IMG/VR virus record: IMGVR_UViG_3300025030_000038
Location: 124,001-188,000 of that record
DNA length: 64,000 bases
Direction: 5' to 3' (one strand)
DNA from: a virus
The notes under the pieces are model-generated. The model made no database searches. It had not been told where the DNA came from and worked only from the letters and a program-made list of their open reading frames with translations. The number at the start of each line of letters is the position of its first letter. The stretch's first letter is position 1. The translations under genes and the position numbers were made by a program. Of this stretch, positions 4,336 through 50,368 are shown in pieces.

Positions 4336-7300
4336 GTCTCGATGATATCACATGTTCCGTATGTGGGGCGGTTAGTGGGGTAGATATGCCCCCTGGCTGT
4401 GCCCATTTTGGACAGGTCAAAACCTTCTCATTTGATGGGCACCCCGCAGACCCAGAGCACAAGATAGGTCAACCTTGGGTCCCCCTACAGACCCCACAGA
4501 CAATGCCCCCCCAAGGGCTCATCATGGAGAAATCCAGGACCAGTGAGTACCGGACCCTACCCAAACTCCCGGGGGAACAGTTCGTTTGGAATGCCCAAGT
4601 GGAAACAGGGAAGTGGCCCGGTGAGTTCATCCTCACGTCTGGGGCTAGGTCCACAGTGTTACATATGACAGATTTGGCCAAGGCCCTGGTGCCAGTAGAG
4701 TCGATGCCCGCTGGGGCAAAGGACTTCGTCGCGGAACTCCCATGGCATCCGCTCTCTGACGATGACACCCAGGTTGGAGACCCAGATCTGTCTCTTGCAA
4801 AGGCCAAGGTTACCAAGCCTGAATCCCGGGTGGTGTCCTCCGTATCAGACTACAAGAAAAAAGTCGACCTGTTGGAAAAAGAAGATGCCAAAGGCATACC
4901 GTCTAAAGTCACAGACTTCATTGGGATGTCTGTACAGTGGTTTGGATGGTCTGGGACTGTCACGGCTGCCAGACCCTACCCGGGACATACTGGGGGCCCT
5001 TTTGTATTGGATGTTGATTGGAAGTCCCTGGATACTGGGGCGAAGATCTACGACGCCGCGACAGCCCATTCCCCAAAATCCACGTGGTTGGATTCCGACT
5101 TGTTGCCTTTCCTGGGGCCAGTGAAGGAAGGGGCTGTTCAGTCCAGTCTAATTGGACGGCGGGTGTCGTTTGCTACCATTCAGGGTACTGTGACTGGTTA
5201 TGCCCGTAATAGCAAATCACGCTACCGAATTTGTTGGGACACCTACAATACCTCTGACTCCCTTTGGACGGAAGCGGAAATCCTACCTTATCTGGTGGGC
5301 CCCAAGAAAGAAGACACACCCATGTCTGATACGCTCGTAACTGATAGCACCACCACCTTTACAATAGGAAGTACCGCTATTTCCAATGGTTATACCCTTC
5401 TGGGCATGGAGCCGAAGAAACCCTATCTTTGGGAAGCTAGCATCAGCAAAGACTACGTCCCTGCCCTCCAGCGGTACATCCACCTTCGCGCCAATTACGA
5501 AGCCAGTAATGCAGAGCGGGAGGCACTAGACCGGGCCTTGTGGGACCTCCATGGCATCTCTCCAGAAGTCTATGTCAATAAGCGGATGGCGGCAGCCAGG
5601 GACAAAAACAAGGGGGACAGCCCCAACCAGATTCTCCAGAAGATGGTCGGGGACCCTATTCACATCGATACCATCAAGGGCATGCAGTCTGACTACTTGG
5701 AAGAACTCCATTCTGTGGGCAAGAAGGAACCAGACAAAGAAGCGGATAAGGAACCCACTCAAGCCGAAGTAACGGAAGCCAAGGAAGTTGCGAACCTACG
5801 GCACCAGTACATTCGCGCTATTGCTGCGGACATCAAAAACGGGGAGCATGCTGGCTGTTTTCACGGAGACTTGACCCAATACATTATTGACTATATCGGC
5901 CCACATGAGGGAGGCACATCCCCCCAAGAGGTGCAGCAGGTACTACTCGCGACACCTGGACTCCTGGAGTGGGCAGTGACAAACGGTGTGAAGACACCTA
6001 CCCAGGAAAGCCTTGCTGGGGTACATATAGCCCAATGGTCCCAGACCGAAAACGAGGCGGGTACCGAAACCCAAGTCGTCCTCAAAGGAGATGGAGAGGG
6101 CCAGAGGGAGGTGCTCCATAGGTTGCAGATTTTCTTGGATCCAGGCACGCCGTGGGAGCCTCAGAAGACTCAAAACCACATTGCTCAAACAGCCCGTGAT
6201 ACCCTGGCTGACCACATCCAGCAGCATATGAAGGAGGCGCTCAAGGACATCCAATTCAACTTTACCTACACCCCAGCCGCCCACGAGAAGATTCAAGCAA
6301 CGGTTAATGAGGTACTCCGGAAGAGGCTCCATTACACGGTCCCCAAAGACACGGATACCGTAAAGTCTCTGGCCAAGGAGATCGCCGTAGCCAGTGCCAA
6401 TGGGAGCCTCAAGGGTCAAGTGCAGACAGACAGCAAAACCTATGAGGAGCTCCTTCAAGATTACATTGATGACCCTACTGAACCAGTAACTTGGGCAGTG
6501 TCGCGGACTGATTTGGGAGCTGAACTCAACTCCAGGGTCGAAGGTCTCATCTACAACGAGCGGGTTAAGAAGGCTATAGGGAAGGCATCCTCAATTGCCT
6601 CTACGCATTCAATGGGGGTTGCTGAAACCAAGCCCAATGCTGTGGCCTTCGATACAGTGGAGTCACTGGCCAATGAAGCCTCCAAGTACTTGAGCACCCC
6701 CGTAGAGACTGCCAAGACATTGATCTTGGAGGACATTACAGGCGTCAAGGTAAACCCCAAGTGGGCATTCCTGCCTAAGGATCTATCTGTTCGGCTGGGC
6801 AATTTCCTGGATCTTGCCTGGGCAATCGGGGCCTTGGATGAGGAGATCGTTAAGTGGCGGACAACGCAGGGGTGGGCATCTCCACTTAGAGAGTTTGGAT
6901 ACGGTGCAGCCATACTGGCCAACATCCAAGCCTGCCACCCCACCCCTCTGGATTGGTCCTACTACTTACCTGCTGATCTGAAGACAAAATTGGATCAGTT
7001 CATCACCCTAGAGCGGGACAAGGTTTGGAAGGGTGTCACAAGTTTTCCCAGGGCAGCCTCCCCCATATTCGCCACGGGAGTCATTTTTGACACGGTGGAA
7101 TCTTTGGCCAATGAGATGGTCAAAGCCAAGGGATATGCGTCCCCCTTCTCCGTGGAACTTGCCAAGGATGAGATCCTTGAGAACATCCAGAAAGACAGGG
7201 ACCGAACGGACTGGGGAACCCTTCCTGTAGAGCTTTCCAAGAGGCTCCAAGCCTTCACAGAACGGGAGCACCGGATCATCTCCCTGGCAGCCGCGAGCCG

Positions 7301-43822: not shown

Positions 43823-44201
43823 TCCATTTGCTCCCTTCAAGGAACCAGTGGTGACACTCCAGATCCCCTTTGTCCCCAACCAGGAAATCGTTCAAGCAGC
43901 GGAACGCCTGACACGGGCTCCAGCAATGCTGTCCCATGAGGAGTTCCTGATTGCACTGGCCCGGGAGGCAATGCACAAGCAGAAGGAAGCCGCCAGCAAT
44001 GCCGAGTTCTTTGACCACTTGGAGCACCATGAGGACCCAATCGTCAACGCACGTAGGGAAGAGACCCGCCTCAATCACCTGAACCAAGCCAAGGTGTGGT
44101 GCCGGGTTGCTGGTACGATCTGCCACCACCTAGCCATCCTCGGTGTCAGGTGGGACACCACCCTTCCGGCTACTGTAACCGTCCTGGGAGATCCACTATG
44201 A
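43797..44201 (+). CDS. helical hypothetical protein
   Basis: 134 aa, ATG inside the previous 3' end. Mainly helical (NQEIVQAAERLTRAPAML), His-rich centre (FFDHLEHHEDP), C terminus beta. Not recognised. Confidence 0.55.
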   Translation: MNGMPKMPDPFAPFKEPVVTLQIPFVPNQEIVQAAERLTRAPAMLSHEEFLIALAREAMHKQKEAASNAEFFDHLEHHEDPIVNARREETRLNHLNQAKVWCRVAGTICHHLAILGVRWDTTLPATVTVLGDPL

Positions 44202-44312
44202 CGACATCCCAACTTCATCTCATATGCCAGGATGGATGTTCCCACCATGGCCGCCAATGAAGTGGCCAGAATCAGGGAACTAAAAGAAGCCCAAGCGCAC
44301 GACCATACGTGA
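44198..44312 (+). pseudogene. possible mini-gene with one-base frame jump
   Basis: ATG 44198 (ATGA coupling) closes after 20 codons. The +1 frame holds MDVPTMAANEVARIRELKEA (ATG 44232) and stops at 44312. Removing one C from the CCC at about 44208 would fuse both into a 37-aa peptide. Weak evidence. Confidence 0.3.
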
Positions 44313-44329
44313 CCCCATATCGATTTCTC

Positions 44330-44356
44330 TAAAAATTGGTGCCCCCATGCCGATAG
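44330..44356 (+). promoter_or_regulatory. sigma-28 type promoter 7
   Basis: -35 TAAAAATT (44330-44337), 11-nt spacer, -10 GCCGATAG (44349-44356), extension CGATTTCTC. Leader of about 40 nt before ATG 44407. Confidence 0.86.
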
Positions 44357-44406
44357 GGTGTAAGGAACTGGCCCTGCGGGCCGGAACACCCACCCAGGAG
44401 ACCACG

Positions 44407-44835
44407 ATGGATGCCTCGACCGTTGACAATGACCCACCCAAGACCCGCCGCACCTACCGGCTCAACAACATCACCGCGCTCGCCACCCCCTGCACCGGAT
44501 GCGACTGCGTGCCGTGCGAGTGCGCCTGTGATGGATGTGGCGCCCCGACACCGGGCGAGTGTGAGTGCAGCGCGATTCGCGGCGAGGGCGACGATGACGC
44601 TATGGCCCCCATGCACTGCGCACCCAGGCCATGTGGCCAAGCCGACTGTGCCGTCTCATCAGGTATCCACGAGGGCCTGACCTTCGGATGCGGGCACCTG
44701 GATCGAAATGGCTACTGGGAGCGTCCCTGTCGGACATGTGCGGCAGCGTGGGATGCAGCCAATCCCAACTCCGAGTATGGCCCGGCTTGGCCTTTCGATA
44801 GAGGCGGGGTTCCTCAGAAGTTTGGTGGCCCGTGA
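44407..44835 (+). CDS. extremely Cys-rich protein
   Basis: 142 aa, first gene after promoter 7. Residues 27-58 contain CTGCDCVPCECACDGCG and CECS, a density typical of metallothionein-like or multi-zinc proteins; a second cluster follows (CAPRPCGQADC, FGCGH, CRTC). The start is ATG 44407, preceded by AGGAGACCACG. Likely binds several metal ions. Whether it buffers zinc, protects against redox stress or binds a partner is unknown. Confidence 0.65.
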   Translation: MDASTVDNDPPKTRRTYRLNNITALATPCTGCDCVPCECACDGCGAPTPGECECSAIRGEGDDDAMAPMHCAPRPCGQADCAVSSGIHEGLTFGCGHLDRNGYWERPCRTCAAAWDAANPNSEYGPAWPFDRGGVPQKFGGP

Positions 44836-45041
44836 CCCTAGAAGAAACAATCCGTGCCTTCCTGGCCTTCTGGAAGACCCACTCCAACTTCGACATGAGC
44901 TACGATGCTGCGTCGGGGCTGTTGATCACGAAGGGCTGTGATGGCAAGTTTGGAACCTGTTGTGCGAAATCTTACGACCTGGATGGGCTGGCGGAGTCCC
45001 TTGAGGATCTCGCTGGGACACCGAAGGGGAAGGAACCATGA
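44832..45041 (+). CDS. hypothetical small protein
   Basis: 69 aa, GTG overlapping the previous stop. Helical with one CxxC-like pair (CDGKFGTCC). Coupled by ATGA downstream. Unknown. Confidence 0.55.
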   Translation: MTLEETIRAFLAFWKTHSNFDMSYDAASGLLITKGCDGKFGTCCAKSYDLDGLAESLEDLAGTPKGKEP

Positions 45042-45328
45042 GAGGGTCCAAGTCAGTGAAACAATACGCCTTCTGGAAACATGACGTGTACCCCTACGTA
45101 TTGGGAGGGGAGGTCACTGAAATGAGCGACGAGGGGCACGTAAGGGCCCATGGGTGGGGGAGTTACTGGTTTAAGCCCTTCAAAATCGTACCCCTACGAG
45201 CGGGGAGGATCTTCAAGCGCGCGCTGGAGAAGCTCCAGGACGGGGAGCGGAAGGCACAAAAGGTACATGGACATGAGTGGACAGCAAAGGTGGCAGCACT
45301 TTTCCCAGAAAGATTCGAGTGCAAGTGA
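45038..45328 (+). CDS. hypothetical protein
   Basis: 96 aa, ATGA-coupled. Contains a barrel-like stretch (VYPYVLGGEVTEMSDEGHVR) followed by a basic helix (RIFKRALEKLQDGERKAQK). Possibly an SH3-like RNA binder. Unknown. Confidence 0.55.
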   Translation: MRGSKSVKQYAFWKHDVYPYVLGGEVTEMSDEGHVRAHGWGSYWFKPFKIVPLRAGRIFKRALEKLQDGERKAQKVHGHEWTAKVAALFPERFECK

Positions 45329-46314
45329 TGAAAACGCTTGAGAAAACATGTTTTGCCCTCATCGAGGGAATGGGATTCACGGGAGGCATCCTCAAGAAGG
45401 AGATGCTACTCGCCGATGGCACCTCTACCTATTGGGTGTCAGCCGGGGACATGACGTCCAAGAAACATCCCACCCCGGAAGCCTCACTTGAGGAGCTGGT
45501 CCGGCTCCTGACCAAGCGGGTGGATGCCAAGGTCAAGACCTTGGAGACCCAAATCGCCAAGCTGAGATCAATCACAGCCCCAACTGGTGCTGCGGGACCC
45601 CATGGTGGGGGTACCTGTCCTGGTTGTGCGGCTGGGGCTGGCGATGAGTGTACCTGCTCTATCCGAACCCCAGCCTACAAAGTGGGGGACCGGGTTCGCC
45701 TTGCCCGCAAGACCAGGGGTACCAACTTGGAGCACCGGTTCATAGGTCTTACGGGGACCGTGACAAGCACTACCCCAAACGCATATGAGGAACTCGAATT
45801 TATGGTGAGCTTCGATGGGGGTGCCAAGGCAGGATGGTACATCGCTGGTGACCTTGATCCTGCCTCTGCCTGTGTGGCTGCCTGTGAGAGGACCCCGGAA
45901 CCAGGGAGCCTGACTGGATTCAAGATTGGGGACCGGGTCAAAGTGGCACGGGGCCGGTACCAACACATTGATGAGACTGGAACCGTGATTGGTCCTTGCG
46001 GACCCCACGAGGTTTGCGTGGGATTCTCCAGTAGTAGGGGTACCGGTACCAGCGCGTATACAGGATACTACATGACCGAGCACCTGGACCATGTGGAGGA
46101 AGAGGAGTTGGCCCGTGGTCCCTGGGGCCGCGGGTCAATCAAAAAGGGCGACATAGTTCGTGCAGACAGGGGTTGGGTGAGCACCACCGAAAAGGGCGAA
46201 GTGGTGGACGTTGGCCCCACTACTTGCTTAGTACTTTTCCCCTCACAGCCCGAACCTGTGGCGCTTCCACATGGGGACCTGAGACGAACGACGTGTGGAG
46301 CAGACAATGAATAG
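45328..46314 (+). CDS. coiled-coil plus triple SH3/KOW-like protein
   Basis: 328 aa, ATG overlapping the previous stop. The N-terminal domain and coiled coil (about 1-90, TLEKTCFALIEGMGFTGGIL, then SLEELVRLLTKRVDAKVKTL) match the family at 30680, 46307 and 51525. A Cys linker (CPGCAAGAGDECTC) follows, then three SH3/KOW-like repeats starting YKVGDRVRLARK, FKIGDRVKVARG and IKKGDIVRADRG. Repeated barrels suggest multivalent binding, perhaps to RNA or ribosomes (inference). Confidence 0.7.
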   Translation: MKTLEKTCFALIEGMGFTGGILKKEMLLADGTSTYWVSAGDMTSKKHPTPEASLEELVRLLTKRVDAKVKTLETQIAKLRSITAPTGAAGPHGGGTCPGCAAGAGDECTCSIRTPAYKVGDRVRLARKTRGTNLEHRFIGLTGTVTSTTPNAYEELEFMVSFDGGAKAGWYIAGDLDPASACVAACERTPEPGSLTGFKIGDRVKVARGRYQHIDETGTVIGPCGPHEVCVGFSSSRGTGTSAYTGYYMTEHLDHVEEEELARGPWGRGSIKKGDIVRADRGWVSTTEKGEVVDVGPTTCLVLFPSQPEPVALPHGDLRRTTCGADNE

Positions 46315-46909
46315 GCAACGGACAACAGGCGAGTGTTTCCTTCTCATGCGATTCTTGGGGCATGATACCCGAATTGAGATCAGCGACAACAAGGCTGACG
46401 GGGGTGTTTTTGCAAATGTTGGGTCCCCTGTCATCAGGCACCGAGGCATCCCCCTCTCGTCAGGACAGCCTGTCAAAACTGGGGAGGCTGCCCTCAACCT
46501 TCTCTATGGGACTTTGGTCCAGGCAATCCAGAAGGACATTGGGGATTTGGAGTCCCAAATTGGGAAGCTCCGCAAAGCCATTGGGGTAGACGCCCCGGTG
46601 GACCCCCCGTCTGAACGGGCAGGTGCCCTGAACGCCATCGCGGAGCCCCTGGGGATCAAGCGGGTGGGGCCGGATGCCATCAAGGTATTGGCCAAGGACC
46701 TCAATGCCGGGGACGTGGTGGTTGGAGTCCTGGGGGGCCGCCACATGTTCGTGGGGTCCCTTCCGTGCCCGGCATCCGAAAAAGTCCTGGTGGTGATCAA
46801 AAAGGATCAGGACGAGTCAGATGATGAGGAGTCCGCCTACCGGGTGGACGTCTGCTTTCCAGAGGACCAGTACATACTGGCCGAGCCAGACGAAGATGTG
46901 GTCACGTAG
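46307..46909 (+). CDS. coiled-coil family protein
   Basis: 200 aa, start overlapping the previous stop by 8 nt. The N-terminal domain (ECFLLMRFLGHDTRIEI, then ALNLLYGTLVQAIQKDI and a coiled coil DLESQIGKLRKAI) is paralogous to its upstream neighbour. The C-terminal half is an acidic beta domain (VVIKKDQDESDDEESAYRVD). Tandem duplication is likely. Last gene before the noncoding region. Confidence 0.65.
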   Translation: MNRQRTTGECFLLMRFLGHDTRIEISDNKADGGVFANVGSPVIRHRGIPLSSGQPVKTGEAALNLLYGTLVQAIQKDIGDLESQIGKLRKAIGVDAPVDPPSERAGALNAIAEPLGIKRVGPDAIKVLAKDLNAGDVVVGVLGGRHMFVGSLPCPASEKVLVVIKKDQDESDDEESAYRVDVCFPEDQYILAEPDEDVVT

Positions 46910-46925
46910 GGTCATACGAATTTGC

Positions 46926-46952
46926 TAAAAATTGGTCTTCTTGTGCCGATAG
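46926..46952 (+). promoter_or_regulatory. sigma-28 type promoter 8, ahead of the noncoding RNA
   Basis: -35 TAAAAATT (46926-46933), 11-nt spacer, -10 GCCGATAG (46945-46952), extension CGAATTTGC. Start of transcription expected near 46960. Unlike the other seven it is followed by about 1 kb without a credible gene. Confidence 0.87.
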
Positions 46953-46959
46953 GGTGTGT

Positions 46960-47806
46960 AAGGAACAGAGAAGAGTCCCAGCCAACAAGGCACCAGTAAA
47001 CGTACGCAGAGGAACCCTACAATGATGAAAAACGCAAGAGCCCCGCCGAGTTAGATCCCACCCAACTTACGCCCTACGGGGCACCCCATGTGTGGATTGA
47101 GTCGGATTGATCGATGAAGTTAGATTGATGTCGGAGGGTAAGCAGTTCCAATGGCGAACCAGAAGCGATAACTGGGCAGGTATGCGAGACAACCGCCCGG
47201 TCGCTGAAAGATGTAGCGCAAGGAGGATGCCGGTGGGCGCCCCCCCAAGTGAAATGTCCGGGCCCCAGTATTGGCCTGGATCAACCCACCAACAGCTTAT
47301 TCCTCTCCAGGTAGCCAGGGTTTAGTTCCTGGCATAGCGCGCAGGGAGAGAGGGAAGCGGAATAGAGTGCGCGTACTTCCGCAATGATGCCTTGTGTTGT
47401 CGTTACAGTTGGTCCAAGGTCCCAGTGAAGATTCTTGGGGCAGTCTGAGGGCAGCACAGGATGGAGTTAGCGGTGGCCTGGGTAGACGTGGGAGGCATTC
47501 CACTGACTGGGTCGAGTCTCAAACGGATGAAGCGGGGCCTCCCGTGGACAATGAGACACCTGCTAGCGAAAGGTCACCCAAAAGGCGCAGTTGGACCCGT
47601 CCCGTGGAAATTGCTGCACGGGGTTAATGTTTGGGCAGAGTGTGGTCTGTGTCAGGGAATACCCCGGCGGGGTCCACAAACTGCCTCAATCGTGATGGTG
47701 GCTAGCGTTAGTGGTTATGTCCCACGCCACCCAGTACGGCCTAACGGTGTGTAGTCGCATTACCCAGAATGGTGGGAGGCCCGGGGCAGAACCGGGTAGG
47801 GGCCTG
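46960..47806 (+). ncRNA. candidate large structured noncoding RNA (about 850-950 nt with its tRNA-like end)
   Basis: No frame here has coding character. Helices seen: AGCGA 47164-47168 with TCGCT 47201-47205, enclosing GGGC/GCCC (47174-47177, 47195-47198); GGTGGG 47232-47237 with CCCACC 47285-47290; GCCAGG/CCTGGC (47314-47319, 47328-47333); GCGGAA/TTCCGC (47357-47362, 47377-47382); GGCAG/CTGCC (47634-47638, 47681-47685) enclosing TGTGG/CCACA (47641-47645, 47674-47678) and ACCCC-ggc-GGGGT; CGTTAG/CTAACG (47706-47711, 47741-47746); CCCGG/CCGGG (47780-47784, 47792-47796). Size, phage setting and adjoining tRNA-like element recall GOLLD and ROOL RNAs. I cannot confirm the class. Confidence 0.65.
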
Positions 47807-47914
47807 AACTTGTTGGTGCAAGACTGGTTAGCACATGGTGAGAGTTGGAAGGTGTTCTAGACCCCACCCCCAACTCTTGCCGGGATCTGGGTTCAAATCC
47901 CAGGCAAGTTGCCA
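47807..47914 (+). tRNA. tRNA-like gene with encoded CCA and an oversized anticodon-side arm
   Basis: Acceptor strands AACTTGT (47807-47813) and GCAAGTT (47904-47910), discriminator G, then CCA. D arm GTGC/GCAC with a GG-containing loop (47816-47834). T arm CTGGG-TTCAAAT-CCCAG (47887-47903), a textbook T loop. Between D and T arms are 52 nt rather than about 23: a 13-bp helix, with three G-T wobbles (47836-47848 with 47870-47882), whose inner loop holds GGTGT-TCTAG-ACCCC. I cannot assign an anticodon; CTA in TTCTAGA is one possibility. Probably a tRNA mimic or the 3' end of the RNA upstream. Confidence 0.65.
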
Positions 47915-47966
47915 AAATGAGAGGATTGAAGCATGTACCACCCCTTGAAGGTGTAAGAGAAACAAC

Positions 47967-48596
47967 ATGTCCATAACCACCCACACGATAATCTCCCCCC
48001 ACAAGGCCGAAGGCCGAATCTTGCGCAGGGTCTACAACACCTTCGACTGGATCCCTCAGACTGCCTGTACCATGGTGCCGGACGGGGACCACCTTGGGAA
48101 CTTCAAAGTACATGGTACAGGCTCCAACCCCATCAACCTGCTGGTTCTGGACAACTATGGCAACGAGAGGCTGCCCGACAAGTTCGCGGGAGCTATCTGG
48201 GGTGGTAGGGTCAAGCAATTCAGCTACACCCTGGCCATCAACACGGACACGGGACAGACATACTTCGCCAACTTTGGGTTGGAAGGGGATGACCTGATCC
48301 TCATCCTCACCGAGGACTACCTCCCCAAGGTGCCAAAGGCCATGCTTCCCCGACTGGACGCGCTGCTTTCTCGAAAGCGTCCCTTCTGGTTCGAGCTTCA
48401 GGAGGCTTTTCTGCGCAGCTACATCTCTCGGTGGGTGGGTTTGGAAAGAGCGTCCGAATTCATCATGGTGGGACTGGACCTTGGCCGCACACCCCAGGTA
48501 CCGGGATCCCCCCTGAAGCGATGCTCCTTATACCTATGGGGGGAGGATACCAGCTATCGTTTTGTTGACGACTGGAAGGATGCAAAAACCACATGA
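47967..48596 (+). CDS. hypothetical protein
   Basis: 209 aa, first gene after the noncoding RNA; RBS is weak (GTAAGAGAAACAAC). Alpha/beta protein (MSITTHTIISPHKAEGRILR; YTLAINTDTGQTYFANFG; YLPKVPKAMLPRLDALLS). No known family. May be read by transcription through the RNA region. Confidence 0.65.
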   Translation: MSITTHTIISPHKAEGRILRRVYNTFDWIPQTACTMVPDGDHLGNFKVHGTGSNPINLLVLDNYGNERLPDKFAGAIWGGRVKQFSYTLAINTDTGQTYFANFGLEGDDLILILTEDYLPKVPKAMLPRLDALLSRKRPFWFELQEAFLRSYISRWVGLERASEFIMVGLDLGRTPQVPGSPLKRCSLYLWGEDTSYRFVDDWKDAKTT

Positions 48597-49030
48597 GTTG
48601 CATGAATTGTCACAATATCCACGGAGGCCCCTGTTCAGATTGTGAACCAGGAGGATACTGCGAAGCCATGCGGGACACACAAGCTGAGACCGAGTTGAAG
48701 AGGCAACTCCGTGAGCTTCGTGACCAGTACACCCACGAGCGGGACGCCCATGACGTTGATGGCCGAGCCCTCCTGAGGGCTACCAGGGAACTGAGGGCCA
48801 TCCAGGATGACAACAATCACCTGCGGGAGTGCATGGCCAACAATGTGCTGAGTGAGGACACGGTCCGGTTGATCCTGTTTCTGCTGGCCAATTCGATGGG
48901 GTACACCAATGCCAGTGAGCTGGTGGACAATTTCCTGGATGGGATGGACGTGACCCCCAAGATCGGGTCCCATGGGGTGTACCGTCTCAATGCGATGCTG
49001 GAAGTGATCCGGCCGAAGCCGAGGACCTGA
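48593..49030 (+). CDS. zinc-knuckle and helical protein
   Basis: 145 aa, ATGA-coupled. N-terminal CMNCHNIHGGPCSDC..GYC forms one or two zinc sites; a long charged coiled coil follows (TELKRQLRELRDQYTHERDA). C-terminal helices. Unknown. Confidence 0.6.
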   Translation: MSCMNCHNIHGGPCSDCEPGGYCEAMRDTQAETELKRQLRELRDQYTHERDAHDVDGRALLRATRELRAIQDDNNHLRECMANNVLSEDTVRLILFLLANSMGYTNASELVDNFLDGMDVTPKIGSHGVYRLNAMLEVIRPKPRT

Positions 49031-49176
49031 TGGGCTGCCAGAACTGCAAACATGCGGGTATGGGCTGGAAGAGTGTGAACGCCTACGGGAGGGTGTGTGA
49101 TGGGAACTTTTGGTTGCATTGTTGGGCTGATCTTCCTCTATGTGCTGTTTGCACACTTTGCATCCAGGCTGTTTGA
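49030..49176 (+). CDS. overlapping 48-aa Cys-rich peptide
   Basis: ATG overlaps the previous stop (TGATG). Opens MGCQNCKHAGMGWKS and has CAVCTLC near the end. It overlaps the membrane gene at 49100 by 77 nt in another frame, so only its first 23 codons are free. May be real or a coupling leader. Confidence 0.35.
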   Translation: MGCQNCKHAGMGWKSVNAYGRVCDGNFWLHCWADLPLCAVCTLCIQAV

Positions 49177-49453
49177 GCGATTCGACCCCTCCTCCGCCTA
49201 CAGTAATCAGAGTCCTGGCACGTGGCGTTCTGAGCATGACCACAAGGACTATCCCAAAATGAGTCCCTGTGACTGGCATGCCGCATACATCATCTTCGGT
49301 TCCGTACTCTGGCCAGCGTCCCTTTCGATATGGACTGTAGGGTTTATCCTGTGGACCTTGCCCCATCGCATAGTCTTGAGGGTCGAACGGTACGGACCGG
49401 ACCAAAGAGGAGTCCAAGGCGGGAACGGGAATGGGCGTTTATCGAAAAGGTAA
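49100..49453 (+). CDS. membrane protein
   Basis: 117 aa, RBS GGGAGG before ATG 49100. Hydrophobic helices at the N terminus (FGCIVGLIFLYVLFAHFA) and middle (YIIFGSVLWPASLSIWTVGF). Its layout resembles the membrane protein at 36579. Charged basic tail. Unknown. Confidence 0.6.
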   Translation: MGTFGCIVGLIFLYVLFAHFASRLFERFDPSSAYSNQSPGTWRSEHDHKDYPKMSPCDWHAAYIIFGSVLWPASLSIWTVGFILWTLPHRIVLRVERYGPDQRGVQGGNGNGRLSKR

Positions 49454-49459
49454 GATGTA

Positions 49460-50368
49460 GTGAAGAACCTACCGGATTGCTGGTGTGGCAGCCAGGACTG
49501 GCAAGAGCGTGGGGGGTCGTTTGGTGGGATGAGCCAGACCAACTATCGCTGCAACCGATGCCAGCGGTGTGCAATTGAGTTGTACATGAATGGCTGTGGC
49601 CTTTTTCATGTCCAGACCAACTCCTCAGTAGACGATGAGGGTCTCGCCTCTGACCCCCACATTCAGTACATCAACCGAGTGCTTCTCTCCGTGTGGCGTG
49701 ACTGGCATGCTCGGGTAGAAGCTGCGCGTGCGCCTCTGAGTCTTGCCAATTACCACGATGTCAATGCCCAACTGGGCCTGCCAGTTGACGCCAAAGACAT
49801 CCCCAAGGAAGTCTATGGGAAATGGAGCGACCTTCTGAATGAGTTTCGTCGCAGCAAGAAATACAAGTACCCGAAAGGGTTTGACCGCCTCCCTGTGCCC
49901 CCCCAGATGCCCCCAAACATGTTTGCCTACATGTGGCAACCTACGGGATGGGAGCGGGTGGTTCCCTCCGACACCAAACACCTGCCCATCCCTCCGGACC
50001 CAATTCGTGTGCGTCACGATGCAGAGTTCCTGGGCATCTTCGAGGAACTGTCCTCCAATGATGTCTGTATCCGGCCCCAGGAGATCCCAAACCAATACTA
50101 CAAGGACGAGTTCAACCTAGAACCGTGGTACACCTTCCCAATGCGTGGGGCACAAATCACCATGGGGCCCCGCAAACGCGTGATCTCCATTCAAGCCACC
50201 CGGGGCACCCCTTTTGACGTGGGGGCTCTGGCGGAACTTGCCAAGGCAGATGGGGTGACTTTTGACGCCGACAGTACCCTGGTCACGAATGTCCTCATTC
50301 ATGCCTGGACGCCTGCCAAGACCGTTGAGTACCTTGACCTGATCTTCAAGGCATTGAGTGCCCCATGA
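49460..50368 (+). CDS. zinc-site hypothetical protein
   Basis: 302 aa, GTG start. CWCGSQDWQ, then CNRCQRC in the first 35 residues suggests a zinc ribbon. The middle has a Pro-rich segment (RLPVPPQMPPNMFAY) and the C terminus is an alpha/beta domain with FDVGALAELAKADGVTFDAD. Not recognised. Confidence 0.65.
   Translation: MKNLPDCWCGSQDWQERGGSFGGMSQTNYRCNRCQRCAIELYMNGCGLFHVQTNSSVDDEGLASDPHIQYINRVLLSVWRDWHARVEAARAPLSLANYHDVNAQLGLPVDAKDIPKEVYGKWSDLLNEFRRSKKYKYPKGFDRLPVPPQMPPNMFAYMWQPTGWERVVPSDTKHLPIPPDPIRVRHDAEFLGIFEELSSNDVCIRPQEIPNQYYKDEFNLEPWYTFPMRGAQITMGPRKRVISIQATRGTPFDVGALAELAKADGVTFDADSTLVTNVLIHAWTPAKTVEYLDLIFKALSAP

What the first reader, a model, noticed from the sequence alone, without database searches (positions are those of the whole stretch)
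46926..47914. About 1-kb noncoding RNA with its own promoter and a tRNA-like 3' end
The last sigma-28 promoter is followed by 1 kb with no gene, many perfect helices (listed in the feature) and a tRNA-like 3' part. Large structured phage RNAs such as GOLLD and ROOL have this size, tRNA association and phage location. It could be a new class or a divergent member, perhaps forming multimers.
Basis: partly seen in the sequence, partly recalled or inferred. Interest (0 to 1): 0.9.

Follow-up and report, generated by a model that had tools for sequence, protein, structure and literature searches.

The report
New pseudoknotted RNA of phage tRNA arrays
Inside a 1-kb gene-free stretch of a 485-kb phage lies an 84-letter knotted RNA of a kind not in the RNA family library, and the same RNA sits among the tRNA genes of many unrelated phages but was not found in cellular genomes.

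Summary
The 1-kb stretch is really noncoding. It starts with one of 33 sigma-28-like promoters of this 485-kb phage and ends in a genuine tRNA-like structure with a CCA end and a roughly 13-bp arm in place of the anticodon arm. GOLLD and ROOL are not there. The 'many perfect helices' are at chance level, and the 1-kb unit as a whole has no detectable relatives. Covariance and pattern searches find it in Myxococcus phage Mx1, Streptomyces phages (Boydwoodruffvirinae) and eight other IMG/VR phage contigs, usually in tRNA arrays, often 2-6 nt from a tRNA end. Helices covary strongly (19 of 27 pairs change on both sides; 0 of 500 shuffles reach the score). No Rfam family matches, and the patterns used found no true match in 84,980 bacterial and archaeal genomes. 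Best reading: a new phage-specific stable small RNA, made and trimmed like a tRNA, acting in trans. Its molecular function is unknown. The context resembles T4 RNA C/D; the sequence and fold do not.

The parts
46926..46952 (+). sigma-28 (FliA)-like promoter TAAAAATT-N11-GCCGATAG, one copy of a phage-wide promoter family
   Evidence: 33 genome copies against 0.6 expected in first-order Markov sequence; similarity to other genome places
46955..47914 (+). presumed noncoding transcript (start and end inferred)
   Evidence: no coding signal in six frames; among the longest such stretches of the genome; transcription itself not tested
47300..47383 (+). conserved ~84-nt pseudoknotted RNA (the core), new family
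   Evidence: model R1 hit 96.8 bits, E 1.6e-19; covariation; no Rfam match
47302..47308 (+). core helix P1, 5' strand CCTCTCC (partner 47347-47353)
   Evidence: 5 of 7 pairs with compensatory changes
47314..47333 (+). core hairpin P2 GCCAGG/CCTGGC with loop GTTTAGTT
   Evidence: 5 of 6 pairs with compensatory changes among the rows that have it; loop RUUNAGUU also seen in Streptomyces phage Tomas
47337..47343 (+). pseudoknot strand a GCGCGCA (partner 47368-47374 TGCGCGT)
   Evidence: paired in all members, two pairs with compensatory changes
47347..47353 (+). core helix P1, 3' strand AGAGAGG, preceded by invariant GGG
47357..47382 (+). core hairpin P3 GCGGAA/TTCCGC; its loop TAGAG-TGCGCGT-AC carries pseudoknot strand b at 47368-47374
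   Evidence: all 7 P3 pairs with compensatory changes
47807..47914 (+). tRNA-like structure: acceptor 47807-47813/47904-47910, D arm 47816-47834, extended arm 47837-47848/47870-47881, T arm 47887-47903, GCCA 47911-47914
   Evidence: sequence and fold; scan and 10-Mb control; not called by ARAGORN, with or without introns, at default thresholds

Best explanation
The region is a phage RNA gene cluster rather than a single 1-kb ornate RNA. A sigma-28-like phage promoter makes a noncoding transcript (inferred). It carries two RNA modules: a new ~84-nt pseudoknotted small RNA (shown by homologs and covariation) and, 420 nt further on, a tRNA-like structure with a CCA end (shown from the sequence). 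In other phages the same small RNA lies between or beside tRNA genes at 2-6 nt spacing, so RNase P and the tRNA 3'-end enzymes would cut it out as a stable ~85-90 nt RNA (inferred). I propose that it works in trans as a compact ligand or scaffold RNA: its invariant unpaired letters (GGG, UAGAG, and the RUUNAGUU loop of most type I members) would be recognised by a host or phage protein of translation or RNA metabolism during infection (inferred; target unknown).
For: Homologs in Mx1, Streptomyces phages and eight other IMG/VR contigs; covariation score 0.396 against 0.130 in shuffles, 0 of 500, and at most 0.127 when partners are slid; 7-bp pseudoknot intact in every member against 0-6 pairs in 131 other motif occurrences; position beside tRNAs: -1 to 5 nt after a tRNA in four lineages and 2-6 nt before one in five records; own promoter TTGACA..TAGAGT in Streptomyces phages; carriers share few genes with the window's phage; strict pattern absent from 84,980 cellular genomes.
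Against: No transcript data. In the window the core is not next to a tRNA, so its release there is unexplained. In L012 it lies just upstream of an ORF, which fits a cis element as well. No protein partner was identified. Members were fetched by DNA patterns over the pseudoknot core, so the invariance of those letters is partly built in.
Confidence: 0.5

Rival explanations
1. The core is a self-cleaving ribozyme that separates tRNAs in phage arrays, working like the theta ribozymes but with another fold.
For: Compact pseudoknotted RNA with invariant unpaired letters, placed at tRNA ends in phages; theta ribozymes set the precedent (PMC10879173).
Against: Spacing to the tRNA varies (-1 to 5 nt) and the flanking letters are not conserved. 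In most Streptomyces phages it opens the transcript with no tRNA upstream and more than 100 nt to the next one. In the window there is no tRNA end at the core.
Confidence: 0.14
2. The core is a cis-acting block to a 5'-to-3' exoribonuclease such as RNase J: a knot that protects the RNA downstream of it.
For: Close to the transcript start in Streptomyces phages, just 3' of tRNA cut sites elsewhere, and in a presumed 5' leader in L012. Knotted folds are known to do this in RNA viruses (own knowledge).
Against: Topology was not compared with known resistant RNAs. In the window about 345 nt precede it. Nothing downstream is common to all carriers.
Confidence: 0.1
3. The whole 1 kb is one large structured RNA that works like GOLLD or ROOL, with the core and the tRNA-like part as domains.
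For: Size, promoter, gene-free stretch and tRNA-like end.
Against: In relatives the core stands alone with 2-6 nt to flanking tRNAs. The rest of the 1 kb shows no conservation, and folding is at chance level. No GOLLD or ROOL match.
Confidence: 0.12
4. The region is a decayed tRNA array: the tRNA-like end is a broken tRNA and only the core is still functional.
For: Other carriers have full arrays. The rest of the 1 kb shows no conservation. Odd tRNA-like elements also occur beside the cores of L011 and L071.
Against: Acceptor, D arm, T arm and CCA are intact and the extended arm is an unbroken 12-bp helix including two G-U pairs, which decay would not readily leave. This phage keeps its tRNAs elsewhere.
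Confidence: 0.14

Closest known systems
T4 RNA C and RNA D (species 1 and 2 stable RNAs)
   Same: Small stable phage RNAs of unknown function inside a tRNA cluster, 1-6 nt from their neighbours; late RNAs seen by Northern blot (PMC9697503). RNA C ends in a tRNA-like part with a T arm, as the window's 3' element does.
   Different: Model R1 finds nothing in the T4 tRNA region; sizes are 139 and 119 nt and the sequences differ.
GOLLD (RF02032) and ROOL (RF03087)
   Same: Noncoding, of unknown function, in phages and prophages, often near tRNA islands (PMC12286853).
   Different: No Rfam match; the conserved part is 84 nt, not 600-800 nt or more; the fold has no counterpart.
Theta ribozymes (minimal HDV-like)
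   Same: Small pseudoknotted RNAs at tRNA 3' ends in phages (PMC10879173).
   Different: Helix order here is P1a-P2-PKa-P1b-P3a-PKb-P3b, not the nested double pseudoknot of HDV; no match to any Rfam family, the HDV-like ones included.
YrlA / bacterial Y RNA (RF02553)
   Same: A weak YrlA match with a permuted tRNA-like module lies directly upstream of the core in L012 (29.3 bits); Ro60-type proteins in 3 of 10 carriers, one of them below the family cut-off.
   Different: The core itself does not match YrlA. The huge phage has no TROVE protein at Pfam sensitivity. Ro60 also occurs in mycobacteriophages in which the core was not found.

Membership tests
GOLLD / ROOL | match to the Rfam covariance model | tested here: not met
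   no hit at gathering score in the window, none to E 1 in 44000-50000, and none to these families up to E 10 in 46900-47960
GOLLD / ROOL | large (about 600-800 nt or more) conserved structured RNA | tested here: not met
   only ~84 nt of the 1 kb is conserved; helices and energy at chance level
GOLLD / ROOL | assembles into multimeric nanocages | not testable with these tools
   needs cryo-EM or native gels
theta / HDV-like ribozyme | nested double-pseudoknot topology with catalytic C in J4/2 | tested here: not met
   covariation-supported order of helices differs; no Rfam HDV-like match
theta / HDV-like ribozyme | self-cleavage at the tRNA 3' end | not testable with these tools
   needs an in vitro assay
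T4 RNA C / RNA D | sequence and structure homology | tested here: not met
   model R1 finds nothing in L077
T4 RNA C / RNA D | place inside a phage tRNA cluster, abutting tRNAs | tested here: met
   true of most relatives of the core, not of the window copy itself
tRNA (for 47807-47914) | acceptor, D and T arms, NCCA end | tested here: met
   sequence, fold and scan
tRNA (for 47807-47914) | 7-nt anticodon loop on a 5-bp stem | tested here: not met
   replaced by a 12-13 bp arm; ARAGORN, also in intron mode, calls nothing at default thresholds
YrlA (Y RNA) | match of the core to RF02553 | tested here: not met
   no match in the window; the hit in L012 (29.3 bits, below the 69-bit cut-off) is the stretch upstream of the core

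The most novel reading that the evidence does not exclude
The core is a new functional class of viral RNA with a biochemical activity of its own (a new self-cleaving or exonuclease-blocking fold, or an RNA that inhibits a host defence or RNA-decay protein), shared across unrelated phages through their tRNA arrays.
Probability: 0.3. Interest if true: 0.88.

Novelty: new variant of a known kind. Interest (0 to 1): 0.66.

Why it matters
Phage tRNA arrays have long been known to carry stable RNAs of unknown function (T4 RNA C and D, GOLLD, ROOL). This adds a compact RNA family with strong covariation, shared by unrelated phages that include culturable Streptomyces phages and Myxococcus phage Mx1, so its function can be tested by deletion, probing and pull-down in laboratory strains. 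It overlaps a presumed protein gene in Mx1 and lies unannotated, or under a short hypothetical protein, in the Streptomyces phages, so it has been overlooked in public genomes.

Tried and rejected
GOLLD/ROOL or any Rfam family: no match. One ornate 1-kb RNA by folding energy or helix count: at chance level. Protein-coding explanation: codon scores negative. tRNA with an intron for the 3' end: ARAGORN intron mode finds nothing at default thresholds. Further copies of the core in the own genome: none. Homologs in bacterial and archaeal genomes: strict pattern 0, looser pattern 4 hits that fail the model; cells were searched only by pattern, not with the model. Plasmids: only chance blastn hits. 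Looser viral patterns: about 120 new loci, 99 of them (0.92 Mb) run through the model at E up to 2 with no match, so they serve as a specificity control. The Ro60/Y-RNA link was considered and not adopted: the huge phage lacks TROVE and Ro60 is common in mycobacteriophages in which the core was not found. A phage sigma factor was not found. The conserved letters of the core were not found printed in any paper of the library. One script failed on an id parse; the check was redone.

Full report
What the window is. The window is bases 124001-188000 of a 485,040-bp virus record that matches LR745208.1, an unannotated 'uncultured phage' record of 485,034 bp. The phage carries about 35 ordinary tRNAs elsewhere but none in this window.

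The observation. The stretch 46926-47914 has no coding signal in any frame, whereas the genes on both sides do; it is one of the longest such stretches of the genome. It begins with TAAAAATT-N11-GCCGATAG, one of 33 sigma-28-like promoter copies against 0.6 expected; most of the others have an ATG within about 45 nt, but this one opens the noncoding stretch. It ends in a tRNA-like structure at 47807-47914: acceptor AACTTGT/GCAAGTT, D arm GTGC..GCAC, a helix of 12-13 bp in place of the anticodon arm, T arm CTGGG-TTCAAAT-CCCAG, and GCCA. A scan for T arm, acceptor and CCA finds this place and six others in the genome, all within tRNAs called by ARAGORN, and none in 10 Mb of simulated sequence. 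The claim of many perfect helices does not hold: 11 helices of 7 bp or more against 12.9 +/- 3.2 in shuffles, and folding-energy z of -1.54 overall.

The real find. A blastn search linked window 47302-47354 to the tRNA cluster of Myxococcus phage Mx1 at 83% identity. Patterns built from the two sequences found further members in IMG/VR phage contigs, and blastn found many Streptomyces phages of Boydwoodruffvirinae. Eight sequences, 66-83% identical to each other, gave a covariance model, R1. R1 scores 91-104 bits on its own members, 67.6 bits on L065, and 42-50 bits on the Streptomyces-type members and L071, none of which were used to build it. It finds nothing in 99 loci (0.92 Mb) fetched with looser patterns, nothing else in the phage's own genome and nothing in the T4 tRNA region. 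Because the IMG/VR members were fetched by DNA patterns covering the pseudoknot core, the conservation of those exact letters is partly built in; the covariation in P1, P2 and P3 is not.

Structure. The order is P1a, P2 hairpin, pseudoknot strand a (GCGNNCA), GGG, P1b, P3a, TAGAG, pseudoknot strand b (TGNNCGT), P3b. On 24 distinct sequences 93.7% of cells are paired, 19 of 27 pairs show changes on both sides, and the covariation score is 0.396 against 0.130 in shuffles (0 of 500 reach it) and at most 0.127 when partners are slid. These rows were aligned to the model, which leans towards its structure; the MAFFT alignment of the eight founders gives the same picture (0.397 against 0.169). All members keep the 7-bp pseudoknot; 131 other occurrences of the flanking motif have 0-6 pairs. 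Two pseudoknot variants are compensatory, one of them in the window itself. RNAalifold recovers P1, P2 and P3 without being told. Type II members differ in P2, but Streptomyces phage Tomas keeps the TTAAGTT loop of type I.

Context. In relatives the core is normally part of a tRNA array. It begins within -1 to 5 nt of a tRNA 3' end in four lineages (Mx1, L009, L010, L068), and ends 2-6 nt before the next tRNA in L009, L068, StarPlatinum, LukeCage and Tomas. In Streptomyces phages a TTGACA...TAGAGT promoter lies just upstream and tRNA-Met genes just downstream. In L011 a tRNA-like element with an extended anticodon arm, a GCCA end and a terminator-like hairpin follows directly, much as in the window, where it follows after 420 nt. 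In L012 a weak Y-RNA (YrlA) match with a permuted tRNA-like module lies just upstream. Loci around the core in the carriers share few genes with the window's phage, and a large window protein has no match in ten carrier records, so the conserved core is not explained by close kinship. A strict DNA pattern for the core finds nothing in 84,980 bacterial and archaeal genomes, and the four hits of a looser pattern fail the model. The model itself could not be run over all those genomes, so a divergent cellular homolog is not excluded.

Known families. No Rfam match for the window or for the cores of relatives. GOLLD and ROOL share only the phage and tRNA-island setting. Theta ribozymes share the tRNA-end setting but have another topology. 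T4 RNA C and D are the closest in kind: stable, of unknown function, 1-6 nt from their neighbours in a tRNA cluster, and RNA C ends in a tRNA-like part; they are not homologous to the core by the model.

Mechanism. Shown: the core exists, is conserved, structured and located in tRNA arrays, and in the searches made it was seen only in phages. Inferred: it is transcribed, released by the tRNA-processing enzymes or from its own promoter, and acts in trans through its invariant unpaired letters. Ribozyme, exonuclease-block, one-large-RNA and relic readings are kept as rivals. Transcription, processing, partner and function need experiments.

Noticed in passing
window 14363, 16552, 26937, 33447, 33730, 35135, 44330, 46926 and 25 further places in the genome: 33 copies of a sigma-28/FliA-like promoter (TAAAAA-N-CGTGCCGATAGGG) mostly just upstream of ATGs, against 0.6 expected, while no Sigma70_r2 protein was found in the phage: it may use a host flagellar-type sigma factor.
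   Followed up: partly
L069 8153-8517 (-): A 363-kb phage contig carries a full-length bacterial class A RNase P RNA (299.5 bits) directly beside tRNA-Trp in its tRNA array.
   Followed up: no
L012 1916-2039 (+): Y-RNA (YrlA)-like element with a permuted tRNA-like module directly upstream of the core, behind a TTGACA..TATACT promoter; 29.3 bits, below the family cut-off.
   Followed up: partly
L011 2644-2749 (-); L071 about 6189-6303 (+): tRNA-like elements with inserted or extended arms next to the core, not called as tRNAs by ARAGORN without introns.
   Followed up: partly
L007 (Myxococcus phage Mx1) 882-1258, 3123-3191, 3534-3609, 5758-5972: tmRNA and several tRNAs (Cys, Pro, three Arg) are absent from the annotation rows shown for Mx1; parts of the tmRNA stretch are annotated as a Hef-like endonuclease.
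   Followed up: no
L017 8563-8637 (-); L021 14664-14740 (-) of the window's own phage: A tRNA with a predicted 8-base anticodon loop (ttta) and a tRNA with stop anticodon tta, possible suppressor tRNAs.
   Followed up: no
L009 1948-2178 (+): Group I intron inside the tRNA array of a 436-kb phage contig.
   Followed up: no
L080 1426-3078 (Samisti12), L083 871-2490, L081 (Mx1): Ro60/TROVE proteins in three core-carrying phages; TROVE is also widespread in mycobacteriophages.
   Followed up: partly
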